Below, one piece after another: positions 60,153-64,000 of a DNA stretch of 64,000 nucleotides. Under the pieces are notes generated by a model. That model was not told the origin of the DNA and did no database searches. It saw only the letters and a list, made by a program, of their open reading frames with translations. The translations under genes and the position numbers were made by a program. The stretch's first letter is position 1, and each line of letters begins with the position of its first letter. The DNA is taken from contig JAFDWU010000002.1 of the NCBI GenBank assembly GCA_018268315.1, positions 473,153-537,152 of the forward strand, given 5' to 3'. This DNA is from Armatimonadota bacterium (GTDB taxonomy: Bacteria; Armatimonadota; Fimbriimonadia; Fimbriimonadales; Fimbriimonadaceae).

Positions 60153-61418
60153 TCAGCTCTTAGGGCTAGAAAGCGGTACGAGATGGATGATCTTTTCTTT
60201 GCGCCGAACTGGTTCGAGCCGGATCCCGAGCCTCTCATATACCTTGTCAAGCCAAGACTTCATTCCATTGGGGGTGCCGTCTTCTGGGAACTCGTTATCC
60301 CAAAAAAGACCATCCAGACTTGGGTCGGCGGAATAGATTGGAACTCCGCGACCGGCCGCGATAAAGCTCCGCGCGTCCTCCACCGTGCGGTAGTGCTTGC
60401 GTTTGGCAGCAGGCAGCTTGTCCAATTCGGATTGCGTGATTAGTTGCCCCTGGTTTGCGACGCTCATGGATAACCCACTCACCTCTTCCTCACGCGTGTC
60501 CAGCTTCGCCTGCCATGCAGCAAGCAGCGACGTAAGAAGGTCATTCTCCATTTCCCCAACCGCTCGCTGAGCGCTCCTTCCGGCAAGGGGGCGAGTAATA
60601 ATCGCGTCCCATCGCGATTGCTGGAACTTATCGTCGAAATCGACCCTGATGTAGGCCGCGAGCGTTGCCGTCAGACTCTCAAGTAGGTCCATTGGGCTCC
60701 AGTTAATAACAGTCGCACCGACGGTCGTGCTGTTCTTGCCGTAGTGGAATCCCATTTGGCGCTTGAAGAGGGATGGCCGCACCACGGTGCAAAAGGGCGG
60801 CATAACAAGGTCGTCCTTGAGTTCGACGTAATCATATGCTGGGTCGAACCCTCCCCGGAAGGTCCTTGGCTCACCGGTCATCTGCTCGATGAAGCTAGTT
60901 CCCCGGCTCGGATCAAAGCCGTGGCCGAGGGTAGCGCCGACCCCCTTAAACTTTCCGCTGATTACCCCTTCGATCATCTCTGGAGTAATCAGATCGGGCT
61001 CAATCACGAAAGCGATTTGGCCATCTGCACCGATGATGTAAGCGGTTGGGAAGAACTTGATCCCCCATTTTCTTTTTGTCGTCTCCGTCTGATCGCTTGC
61101 GATCATGCCAAGCATCTCGGTCTTGCCCATGAACTTGGCAATAACCTCAGGGGCCTCGGGGGATATTGAGATGAATGTTACGGGCTTTCCCTTGAACCGC
61201 TCCACTAGCTCGTTCATTTTTGGAATCGTCGCGATGCATGGAGCACACCATGTCGCCCAGAAGTCGACGATTGCCACTTTGCCCTTGAGCAAGTCAGGCG
61301 AAATGGGTCGAGGTTTGCCCGACTTCTGAACTTCCACAAGCCCTGGCAAATTTGGGGCGGCAGTGCCGCTTGGCAATTGTTTGCCGACTATTAGCAGGCC
61401 AGCTAAAACGGAAAGCAT
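60153..61418 (-). CDS. TlpA-type thioredoxin-fold protein with long C-terminal domain
   Basis: This 421-residue protein has an N-terminal membrane/signal helix (about 2-18), a TlpA/ResA-like thioredoxin domain (about 40-155) with the redox motif FWATWCAPCIATIP, and a second region of about 260 residues. That region has the flavour of the TIGR03435 or STN-like modules ('GATVINWSPMDLLESL', 'KVYERLGIRLEPV' near the end), though I cannot confirm the family. A disulfide role in the periplasm is plausible. It lies downstream of the PPTase gene with a 175-base gap that shows no gene. Confidence 0.78.
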   Translation of the reverse strand: MLSVLAGLLIVGKQLPSGTAAPNLPGLVEVQKSGKPRPISPDLLKGKVAIVDFWATWCAPCIATIPKMNELVERFKGKPVTFISISPEAPEVIAKFMGKTEMLGMIASDQTETTKRKWGIKFFPTAYIIGADGQIAFVIEPDLITPEMIEGVISGKFKGVGATLGHGFDPSRGTSFIEQMTGEPRTFRGGFDPAYDYVELKDDLVMPPFCTVVRPSLFKRQMGFHYGKNSTTVGATVINWSPMDLLESLTATLAAYIRVDFDDKFQQSRWDAIITRPLAGRSAQRAVGEMENDLLTSLLAAWQAKLDTREEEVSGLSMSVANQGQLITQSELDKLPAAKRKHYRTVEDARSFIAAGRGVPIYSADPSLDGLFWDNEFPEDGTPNGMKSWLDKVYERLGIRLEPVRRKEKIIHLVPLSSPKS

Positions 61419-61593: not shown

Positions 61594-62247
61594 TCACAGT
61601 TCCTGGGGGAAAGTTGCCACTGCTCCGCAATATCCTTCCGGCACGGCCAAGCGCGTCGTGCTCAATGGATCATGGCGAGCAGCCTCTACCCGGTCTGAAA
61701 ACAGAACCTCCAGACTCGAAAGAGGCATCTTCATTCCCATCCCCAGTGCTTTTGCGCACGCCTCTTTTAGCGTCCAGGCCTGGAATGCCTCGGCTAACGA
61801 ACTCCCTTCCAAATACTGCCTCTCTTTGGAGTTGCAGTGCCGCAAAATCGCTGCTAAGCTGCCTGGACTGGGATCTATCCATTCGATATCGACCCCAACC
61901 GCCCCGCACGTTGAAAGCGCGATCAAGGCAAGGTCCCGTGATGCCGATACACTAAACTCAACTGCTCGTCCGACGAGAAATGGCTTCCCATTTTCATCGG
62001 TTTCAATTTGAAGCGATCTGGGCTCCTCACCTAATTCGGCGCCAAGTATTCGTCTCAAAGTTCCTCGACCCAACGCAAATGTAATCGCCTTCCATCGGTG
62101 TCCGTACCGTTCGAAGCGCGCGCGCTCAGAAGCTGAAAGCAGCTCAAAGCACGTCGAAAGCACCTTGGCATCTTCGGAAATTGGCGCTTGCCAAACCGTC
62201 AAGCCAGCCTCATCGTATATCTTCTTGGCCCAAGGCGCGCCTTCCAT
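61594..62247 (-). CDS. 4'-phosphopantetheinyl transferase (Sfp-type)
   Basis: This 217-residue enzyme moves the phosphopantetheine arm from CoA to carrier-protein serines. It has the two-lobe Sfp layout with GVDIEWIDP (metal-binding Asp and Glu) and WTLKEACAKALGMGM (Lys/Glu) motifs; the N-terminal lobe has RGTLRRILGAELG. Its ATG shares one base with the stop of the upstream synthetase (TAATG), so the two are translationally coupled. It should load the carrier domain of that synthetase. Confidence 0.9.
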   Translation of the reverse strand: MEGAPWAKKIYDEAGLTVWQAPISEDAKVLSTCFELLSASERARFERYGHRWKAITFALGRGTLRRILGAELGEEPRSLQIETDENGKPFLVGRAVEFSVSASRDLALIALSTCGAVGVDIEWIDPSPGSLAAILRHCNSKERQYLEGSSLAEAFQAWTLKEACAKALGMGMKMPLSSLEVLFSDRVEAARHDPLSTTRLAVPEGYCGAVATFPQEL

Positions 62248-64000
62248 TAGTTGCTCAAGGCTACCGTCTCAGTAATCTCGTGGTGCCGCACCGGATCGTC
62301 ACAAGCCTGCACCGGCGAACCGGTCCAGAACGTGTTGCTGGGAATGGTTTCTCCCTTCATAACAAGCGAAAGGTGACCGACATGAGCGTCGCTGCGCAGC
62401 TCTGAGTCGCAGAGGATAACCGAGTAGTGGCCCACTGAGCATCGATCGCCGATGCGTATCGGGCCCATCTTCATTACACGATCCTCGAAGAGGTGGGCTT
62501 GAAGAGGCGCGTTGGCGTTGATCGCCACATCGTGGCCAATTGTGATGAGATCCGTCTCTGTCCAGTCGGTCGTGTTGATGAAAGTCCGCTTGCCCACCGA
62601 TGCGCCGAGGAACCTCATGAACCAAGCAAGGAACGGCGTGCCAACGAGCGCCTGCACGAAGATCGGTACTCCAAAGTCGTGAAGCACCGCCGAGTACGTC
62701 TCCGCCCTGTATACAAATCCGCTCCAAAGCGGGCTCACCGCAGGCTCATACTTGCCAACCAGCACCCACTTGGTGAGTTTGCACATCGCAGCGGCTACCA
62801 CCGACATGATAAGGAAGATGATGGGGCTTGCTAGCGTTGCCCACACAAGCGAGGACTCATTCCAAACCAGAACGAACAGCTCTAAGAAGATCGAAGCTGC
62901 AATGAGCGAGAACATGCTTGGCAGCACGAGCCGGAATGCCTCATGAGCCAGACGGTGAATATACATCGACGTCGTGGGGCGATACGTTTTGCTGATATCA
63001 AATTGGTCGTGAACCTGCCTGTTCGGCATGCTGAACGCCGGTGAGCCAAGCCAAGCCTGCCCTTTTTCTGGGCCGCTTACCTTAGAATCCGGCCAAACGG
63101 AAAGCACGCCGAGCAGAGATTCATCTGGCACCGACGTTCCTTGCGGAAGCACCGCATCGTTGCCTAAGAAGACTCGCTTACCGACCACCGTCTTTTCGAG
63201 GAAGATCTGGCCGTTACGGCGAATCGGCATGCCGATGCTGACCTCGCTTGCCAAGAAGCTCTCCTCGCCCATCTCGAGGAGGTCATAAGGCATGCGCCGC
63301 GGCAGCGCGATTTCGCATCTTGGTCCGCACTTCATGCCAAGCGCCATACACCAGTTGCGGGCAAACAGCGAGTCGTAAATCGGCACGACCGCAGCAGAAG
63401 TTGCGTCTAAATGCCGGTCCGTAAACCACTTTCGAACCGAGTAACCGCTTGGAAAAGGCAGGGTGCCTGACTTGAGCCTTCCCAGCACGACCCACTTCAC
63501 CACCAGCGACTGCACGGCCGCTATCAGCACAAGGCCGATAGCGTAGACCGGCTCCCACAAATACTCTCTGAAGCCCACGCTCGCGCTATAAAGCGCGAAC
63601 CCGGTCACTACAAAGGGGACCGACTCGAGCATCGTCAGAACCAACACCAGCAGACTCTGAAGGATGCCAAAGAAGGCATATCGAATCATGGTGGGCTGCT
63701 TGGCCGGATCGTAAGATGGAATCAGCTGTCGATCCGCCTTGCCTGCGGGCGAGCCCGCCCACTCCTCGTAGGCGGGAACGGTGACCCCCATTCCCACGCA
63801 TGTCAGGTCTCGCAGCGTCGCCCCTTCTTCAAGCGCCGCGCCTCCGGCGACACCTGATCGAACGCCCACGATGCACCCATCGGCGATGCGGATTGGATAG
63901 ATGTGGAGTTCGCCCTGGCTAACCGCCCCCGCGTGAAGCCACGCGGAGTTCTCAAAGCTACAGTTATCGCCAATCGAGACTAAGTCCGGGCAGTCGATAT
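62247..64000 (-). CDS. Pls/PosA-type peptide synthetase, C-terminal part (runs off the window)
   Basis: Only the 3' part is seen; the frame stays open to the window end (first visible residues 'IDCPDLVSIGDN'). What is present is the terminal module of TIGR02353-type nonribosomal synthetases: hexapeptide left-handed beta-helix lobes (first 'CIVGVRSGVAGGAALEEG', second 'GEESFLASEVSIGMP ... GKRVFLGNDAVLPQG', third 'TDLITIGHDVAINANAPLQA') separated by membrane-helix pairs (about 60-125 and 310-365 counted from 63869). Pls makes epsilon-poly-L-lysine with such a tail; the monomer here depends on the unseen A domain. It is coupled to a PPTase. Confidence 0.82.
   Translation of the reverse strand, partial: IDCPDLVSIGDNCSFENSAWLHAGAVSQGELHIYPIRIADGCIVGVRSGVAGGAALEEGATLRDLTCVGMGVTVPAYEEWAGSPAGKADRQLIPSYDPAKQPTMIRYAFFGILQSLLVLVLTMLESVPFVVTGFALYSASVGFREYLWEPVYAIGLVLIAAVQSLVVKWVVLGRLKSGTLPFPSGYSVRKWFTDRHLDATSAAVVPIYDSLFARNWCMALGMKCGPRCEIALPRRMPYDLLEMGEESFLASEVSIGMPIRRNGQIFLEKTVVGKRVFLGNDAVLPQGTSVPDESLLGVLSVWPDSKVSGPEKGQAWLGSPAFSMPNRQVHDQFDISKTYRPTTSMYIHRLAHEAFRLVLPSMFSLIAASIFLELFVLVWNESSLVWATLASPIIFLIMSVVAAAMCKLTKWVLVGKYEPAVSPLWSGFVYRAETYSAVLHDFGVPIFVQALVGTPFLAWFMRFLGASVGKRTFINTTDWTETDLITIGHDVAINANAPLQAHLFEDRVMKMGPIRIGDRCSVGHYSVILCDSELRSDAHVGHLSLVMKGETIPSNTFWTGSPVQACDDPVRHHEITETVALSN

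What the first reader, a model, noticed from the sequence alone, without database searches (positions are those of the whole stretch)
61594..64000. Pls/PosA-type synthetase tail translationally coupled to its own PPTase
The C-terminal three-lobed beta-helix and membrane module is the hallmark of self-contained synthetases such as epsilon-poly-L-lysine synthetase. A Sfp-type PPTase overlaps its stop by one base, so activation of the carrier domain is built into the operon. This points to an isopeptide or polycation product in a lineage not known for it.
Basis: partly seen in the sequence, partly recalled or inferred. Interest (0 to 1): 0.62.

Follow-up and report, generated by a model that had tools for sequence, protein, structure and literature searches.

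The report
Polycation synthetase with linked activating enzyme
A little-studied bacterium of the phylum Armatimonadota carries a complete enzyme of the kind that makes antimicrobial polycations such as epsilon-poly-lysine; the enzyme has a substrate pocket not matched in the literature I could read, and its linked activating gene seems to be the only one of its kind in the cell.

Summary
The window holds the last 583 residues of a 1,329-residue synthetase. The rest lies just right of the window in the same contig: an adenylation (A) domain, a carrier (T) domain and the first membrane pair. The tail matches TIGR02353 (Pls/PosA) end to end, 537 bits against a cut-off of 423. An AlphaFold model (pLDDT 93.8) shows three left-handed beta-helix lobes and three helix pairs. 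The Sfp-type PPTase overlaps the stop codon by one base (TAATG) and has an intact Asp-Glu-Glu triad.

Three results go further. (1) The A-domain code is DGESLGTVGK: the Asp and Glu that bind a diamino acid are kept, but the pocket looks wider at two positions than in epsilon-poly-lysine synthetase (DAESIGTVVK). All seven complete relatives with this code form one clade, found only in Armatimonadota. (2) All five members from the window's own family carry an adjacent PPTase in otherwise different surroundings. (3) The window's genome has no recognisable AcpS, so this PPTase probably also activates the fatty-acid carrier protein.

Verdict: a new variant of a known kind. The product is unproven: a basic isopeptide homopolymer, of lysine or a larger basic amino acid.

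The parts
62247..64000 (-). C-terminal 583 residues (747-1329) of the Pls/PosA-type synthetase; the gene continues right of the window to window-equivalent 66236 (G000:C2:535399-539388, L002:2400-6389 minus)
   Evidence: TIGR02353 537.4 bits over 2-695/695
63720..64000 (-). most of the first beta-helix lobe (C1), residues 747-839
   Evidence: AlphaFold2 model, pLDDT 93.8, pTM 0.92; matches to hexapeptide acetyltransferases
63474..63692 (-). membrane helix pair 2, residues 849-921
   Evidence: hydropathy scan, long helices in model
62985..63374 (-). second beta-helix lobe (C2), residues ~955-1084
62757..62939 (-). membrane helix pair 3, residues 1100-1160
62292..62636 (-). third beta-helix lobe (C3), residues ~1201-1315
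62466..62495 (-). HLFEDRVMKM motif (residues 1248-1257): H, F, E, D, R and K invariant in 62 family members; candidate catalytic site of the condensing domain (inference)
   Evidence: invariant columns of alignment A2
62247..62249 (-). TAA stop of the synthetase, overlapping by one base (62247) with the ATG of the PPTase (62245-62247): TAATG, a stop/restart junction
61594..62247 (-). Sfp-type 4'-phosphopantetheinyl transferase, 217 aa, D120/E122/E162 triad intact; only PPTase found in the genome
   Evidence: PF01648 50.7 bits; triad invariant in seven linked PPTases

Best explanation
This is a two-gene operon for a membrane-bound, single-module synthetase of cationic isopeptide homopolymers (Pls/PosA kind). 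The A domain adenylates a basic amino acid, most likely L-lysine or a slightly bulkier basic relative, and loads it on the T-domain phosphopantetheine. The C-terminal domain (three beta-helix lobes on three membrane-helix pairs) repeatedly joins the side-chain amine of one unit to the carboxylate of the next, giving a short polycation that is probably released outside the cell as an antimicrobial or surface-active agent. The overlapping PPTase gene is probably co-translated and primes the T domain. In this genome it probably also primes the fatty-acid carrier protein in place of the missing AcpS. Shown: domains, architecture, pocket residues, gene linkage, absence of other PPTase hits. Inferred: substrate identity, polymer product, secretion, role, translational coupling, dual use of the PPTase.
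For: Full-length TIGR02353 plus A and T domains and no other NRPS domain. Six hydrophobic segments in three pairs and a confident model with three left-handed beta-helices, closest to hexapeptide acyltransferases, as described for PosA (PMC10522769). Code positions fixed by gapless alignment to PosA (8G95) and Pls (7WEW): D216 and E220 match PosA D217 and E221, and T303 matches T304. Code DGESLGTVGK shares 7 of 10 with Pls DAESIGTVVK. On a tree of 99 relatives each code class forms one group; the DGE clade has support 100. An adjacent same-strand PPTase lies next to 5 of 5 members from the window's family, in otherwise different surroundings, and in or near many other family loci, 7 of them fused. 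Sole PPTase. Only two carrier proteins in the genome, the FAS ACP beside FabF and this T domain.
Against: No product, expression or enzyme data. No member of this exact code class is characterised in the papers I could read, so the substrate could be something other than lysine. The clade members G127 and G128, from another family, have no PPTase beside the synthetase, so the linkage is not needed for function. The genome is in 9 contigs, and a small AcpS gene could lie in a gap. Four other family genomes over 90% complete also lack the AcpS profile match.
Confidence: 0.82

Rival explanations
1. The enzyme is simply an epsilon-poly-L-lysine synthetase; the pocket changes are neutral drift and the product is ordinary epsilon-poly-L-lysine (a narrower version of the main reading).
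For: Code shares 7 of 10 positions with Pls DAESIGTVVK, the nearest known code; the tree places it away from the Dap/Dab-type clade. L-lysine is always available.
Against: The three changes (A to G, I to L, V to G) are fixed in all 7 complete clade members over 3 bacterial families, within a conserved SDGHHEE(V/I)WP segment, which suggests selection. Position 2 is the one PosA work ties to substrate length (PMC10522769).
Confidence: 0.45
2. The enzyme makes epsilon-poly-beta-lysine, as the Streptoalloteichus enzyme with code DGESISVVNK does.
For: Both codes have Gly at position 2 and Ser at position 4 (PMC10522769).
Against: No lysine 2,3-aminomutase family (TIGR00238) match in this genome, and no match over the cut-off in any of the 85 family genomes; positions 5, 6, 7 and 9 differ.
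Confidence: 0.08
3. The synthetase couples a single amino acid to another acceptor (lipid, wall polymer or small molecule) rather than polymerising it; the acyltransferase-like tail would be a plain transferase.
For: The tail is built of hexapeptide acyltransferase lobes, and most family members have no known product.
Against: Every characterised member of this architecture named in PMC10522769 polymerises a diamino acid; the invariant tail motifs are kept here.
Confidence: 0.12

Closest known systems
epsilon-poly-L-lysine synthetase Pls (Streptomyces albulus; A domain PDB 7WEW)
   Same: A-T then six membrane helices in three pairs with three beta-helix lobes; acidic pocket with Asp and Glu; code 7 of 10 identical
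   Different: Code positions 2, 5 and 9 (G, L, G instead of A, I, V); overlapping PPTase gene; phylum Armatimonadota; product unknown
delta-poly-L-ornithine synthetase PosA (Acinetobacter baumannii; PDB 8G95-8G98)
   Same: Same architecture; D217, E221 and T304 equivalents kept; best-scoring solved structure over the pocket region
   Different: Met at position 2 and Ser at position 9, which shape the ornithine pocket, are both Gly here; H and N at positions 4 and 5 are S and L
epsilon-poly-beta-lysine synthetase (Streptoalloteichus hindustanus), code DGESISVVNK as given in PMC10522769
   Same: Gly at position 2, Ser at position 4
   Different: Positions 5, 6, 7 and 9 differ; no lysine 2,3-aminomutase in the genome
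Single Sfp-type PPTases that serve fatty-acid synthesis (Haemophilus Hppt, Synechocystis Sppt; PMC4103896)
   Same: Group II PPTase as the only PPTase of the cell
   Different: Here the gene overlaps the stop codon of a polycation synthetase gene

Membership tests
Pls/PosA family (TIGR02353) homopolymer synthetases | TIGR02353 terminal domain above the curated cut-off | tested here: met
   537.4 bits against 423.1, profile 2-695 of 695
Pls/PosA family (TIGR02353) homopolymer synthetases | A and T domains upstream, carrier Ser present, no canonical C or TE domain | tested here: met
   PF00501 257.5 bits, PF00550 32.2 bits, LGGYS at 555-559, no C or TE hit
Pls/PosA family (TIGR02353) homopolymer synthetases | three beta-helix lobes and three pairs of membrane helices | tested here: met
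Pls/PosA family (TIGR02353) homopolymer synthetases | Asp and Glu at code positions 1 and 3 | tested here: met
   D216, E220
Pls/PosA family (TIGR02353) homopolymer synthetases | isopeptide-linked homopolymer product | not testable with these tools
   needs enzyme or metabolite work
epsilon-poly-L-lysine synthetase (substrate class) | lysine-type code DAESIGTV(V/I)K | tested here: not met
   DGESLGTVGK; does not exclude L-lysine as substrate
delta-poly-L-ornithine synthetase (substrate class) | code DMEHNGTVSK with Met at position 2 | tested here: not met
   Gly at position 2
epsilon-poly-beta-lysine synthetase (substrate class) | code DGESISVVNK and a beta-lysine source | tested here: not met
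   code differs at 4 positions; no TIGR00238 in the genome
Group II (Sfp-type) PPTase | PF01648, over 200 residues, Mg-binding Asp-Glu-Glu triad | tested here: met
   217 aa, 50.7 bits, D120, E122 and E162 invariant among linked PPTases
AcpS (group I PPTase) | ~120 aa, TIGR00516 above cut-off | tested here: not met
   217 aa; 17.4 bits against 59.8

The most novel reading that the evidence does not exclude
The DGESLGTVGK clade makes a cationic homopolymer from a basic amino acid bulkier than lysine, not previously described. In the window's genome the PPTase of this secondary-metabolite operon has taken over the essential job of AcpS, tying fatty-acid synthesis to a polycation operon.
Probability: 0.2. 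Interest if true: 0.7.

Novelty: new variant of a known kind. Interest (0 to 1): 0.5.

Why it matters
Pls/PosA enzymes are single-gene makers of antimicrobial polycations, and few substrate classes are known. A clade-wide pocket with two widening changes is a direct lead to a further polymer, testable with one A-domain assay. A secondary-metabolite PPTase as the only PPTase of a cell would show how an operon gene can become essential. The linked or fused PPTase seen across the family also gives a ready-made holo-enzyme expression unit.

Tried and rejected
Riboswitch or other known RNA upstream of the gene: one sub-threshold Rfam match only, inside the coding region and far below its gathering score. 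Upstream DNA of four relatives is not conserved. Promoter and terminator scans gave no more than shuffles. PPTase structure without an alignment: pLDDT 40.6, not used. A hidden AcpS in this genome: PF01648, TIGR00516 and a five-sequence AcpS profile find only the linked PPTase or chance hits, and the gene that AcpS adjoins in several relatives has no AcpS after it here. Beta-lysine as substrate: no aminomutase. A wider conserved cluster: neighbours differ in the relatives apart from the PPTase. Recent foreign origin by composition: GC 58.2% (synthetase) and 54.6% (PPTase) against 56.6% for the window, so no signal. Solved structure of the terminal domain: none seen among the best PDB matches. 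Literature tying Pls to a PPTase: only a review that mentions both terms, not read further.

Full report
Observation. The window is G000:C2:473153-537152 of a 2.8-Mb genome in 9 contigs rated 100% complete. On the minus strand, the PPTase ORF occupies 61594-62247 and the synthetase runs from its stop at 62247-62249 off the right edge. The junction is ...AACTAATGGAAG..., so stop TAA and start ATG share one A. Fetching the next stretch of the contig gave the whole synthetase: 1,329 aa, ATG start, L002:2400-6389 minus.

Architecture. Pfam and NCBIfam place an adenylation domain at 27 to ~505 (TIGR01733 379.6 bits, cut-off 317.4), a carrier domain at 533-596 with LGGYS, and TIGR02353 at 623-1309 over the whole profile. 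Hydropathy shows six segments in three pairs: 622-649/657-689, 849-883/894-921 and 1100-1127/1128-1160. AlphaFold2 on residues 605-1315 with an alignment of 62 sequences gave pLDDT 93.8 and pTM 0.92, with three repeats of two long helices followed by short-strand coils. Its lobes align best to hexapeptide acetyltransferases such as maltose O-acetyltransferase, Z 7.9 over 141 residues; the tool warns that Z under 8 may mean only a shared arrangement, but a three-lobed left-handed beta-helix is what the PosA authors predicted for this domain (PMC10522769). In the motif HLFEDRVMKM of the third lobe, H, F, E, D, R and K are invariant in 62 members; calling it catalytic is inference.

Pocket. HMMER aligns the pocket region without gaps around the code positions to PosA (8G95) and Pls (7WEW). 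Read this way, Pls is D-A-E-S-I-G-T-V-V, PosA is D-M-E-H-N-G-T-V-S as published, and the window protein is D216-G217-E220-S259-L279-G281-T303-V311-G312-K501. In PosA, D217 and E221 are essential and hold the two amines, T304 and S313 help, and M218 limits side-chain length; mutating it to Ala raised lysine use about tenfold (PMC10522769). Here positions 2 and 9 are both Gly, so the pocket should be wider than in Pls. That is an inference from sequence; no pocket volume was computed.

Relatives. A genome-contig scan found relatives in many phyla, the nearest at 70% identity in an Armatimonadota MAG and the rest at 33-38%. In the window's own family 7 of 85 genomes have a long TIGR02353 match, and 25 of 291 genomes of the phylum have a Pls-like protein. 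Codes sort cleanly on a tree of 99 proteins: DAES-type 61 rows, DFE-type 19, DSECYGGVTK 11, DGESLGTVGK 7, one ornithine-like. The DGE clade has SH-aLRT 100 and holds genomes of three Armatimonadota families; two from another family lie among those of the window's family, which fits transfer or patchy loss. The tree used the quick method, and its long-branch warning concerns the single ornithine-like row that joins this clade, so the clade's deeper position is unsure.

PPTase linkage. All five members of the clade from the window's family (the window, G022, G012, G035 and a fragment in G025) have a same-strand PPTase immediately downstream; where the PPTase start is clear the spacing runs from a 4-base overlap to a 10-base gap. 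Other neighbours are not shared, apart from a nitroreductase near two of them. Naming this family Fimbriimonadaceae is inference from the Armatimonadota MAG title and a 5.2-Mb single-contig member. The linked PPTases are 25-36% identical to the window's while the synthetases are 58-70% identical to each other, yet D120, E122 and E162 are invariant. This is the Asp-Glu-Glu triad of three-magnesium-residue PPTases (PMC4103896). In the wider set 34 of 85 loci hold a PPTase in the fetched stretch, upstream or downstream; in seven Holophagaceae it is fused to the C-terminus (one confirmed by Pfam). The clade members G127 and G128 have a sugar-transporter-like gene instead (by eye).

Sole PPTase. 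PF01648 finds one match in the genome, this gene. TIGR00516 and a profile of five family AcpS proteins find no AcpS, while the same profile finds AcpS in 65 of 70 good family genomes. The Fe-S protein gene that adjoins AcpS in several relatives is present here without AcpS. The genome has two PF00550 carriers: the FAS ACP with its GADSLD motif beside FabF, and this T domain. The other clade members of this family (G012, G022, G025, G035) keep AcpS. So the linked PPTase has probably taken over fatty-acid ACP priming in this one lineage. Cells with a single Sfp-type PPTase are known (PMC4103896). A gap in the assembly cannot be excluded.

Mechanism. A basic amino acid is adenylated, loaded on the holo-T domain, and chained by the membrane-anchored terminal domain through its side-chain amine; the chain is probably released across the membrane. 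Loading and chaining follow from the family (PMC10522769); substrate, length and release here are untested. TAATG junctions commonly allow stop-restart translation (general knowledge), so coupling is plausible but not shown.

Novelty. The family is known and widespread. Overall: new variant of a known kind.

Noticed in passing
L057, L058, L062, L068, L089, L092, L093 (C-terminal ~160-200 residues of the synthetase ORF): In Holophagaceae (Acidobacteriota) the PPTase is fused to the C-terminus of the synthetase, giving 1,536-1,678-residue proteins: a self-priming polymer synthetase.
   Followed up: partly
L119:6298-12440 and L120:6268-12356: Two genomes of the window's family (G020, G021) have a different Pls-like operon with code DSECYGGVTK (the code of a Bdellovibrionales A domain that uses L-arginine, PMC10522769): SET-domain protein, synthetase, DUF418/HGSNAT-like membrane protein, PPTase. 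The SET and DUF418 genes are conserved between the two.
   Followed up: partly
G049, G062, G063, G064 (family genomes): Four other genomes of the family over 90% complete also lack a match to the AcpS profile and have only weak or no PF01648 hits, so AcpS loss or replacement may have happened more than once.
   Followed up: no
L002:8313-15348 (right of the window): An efflux-type operon (large RND-like pump, membrane fusion protein, outer-membrane factor, by eye) lies upstream of the synthetase on the same strand but is separated by a divergent gene; not seen near the relatives.
   Followed up: no
window 60153-61418: The next gene downstream is a thioredoxin/TlpA-type protein, about 175 bases past the PPTase stop; a weakly similar gene lies near the locus in G012 in the other orientation.
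   Followed up: no
L118:9768-11471: A flavin-dependent halogenase-like gene lies near the synthetase-PPTase pair in G022 on the opposite strand.
   Followed up: no
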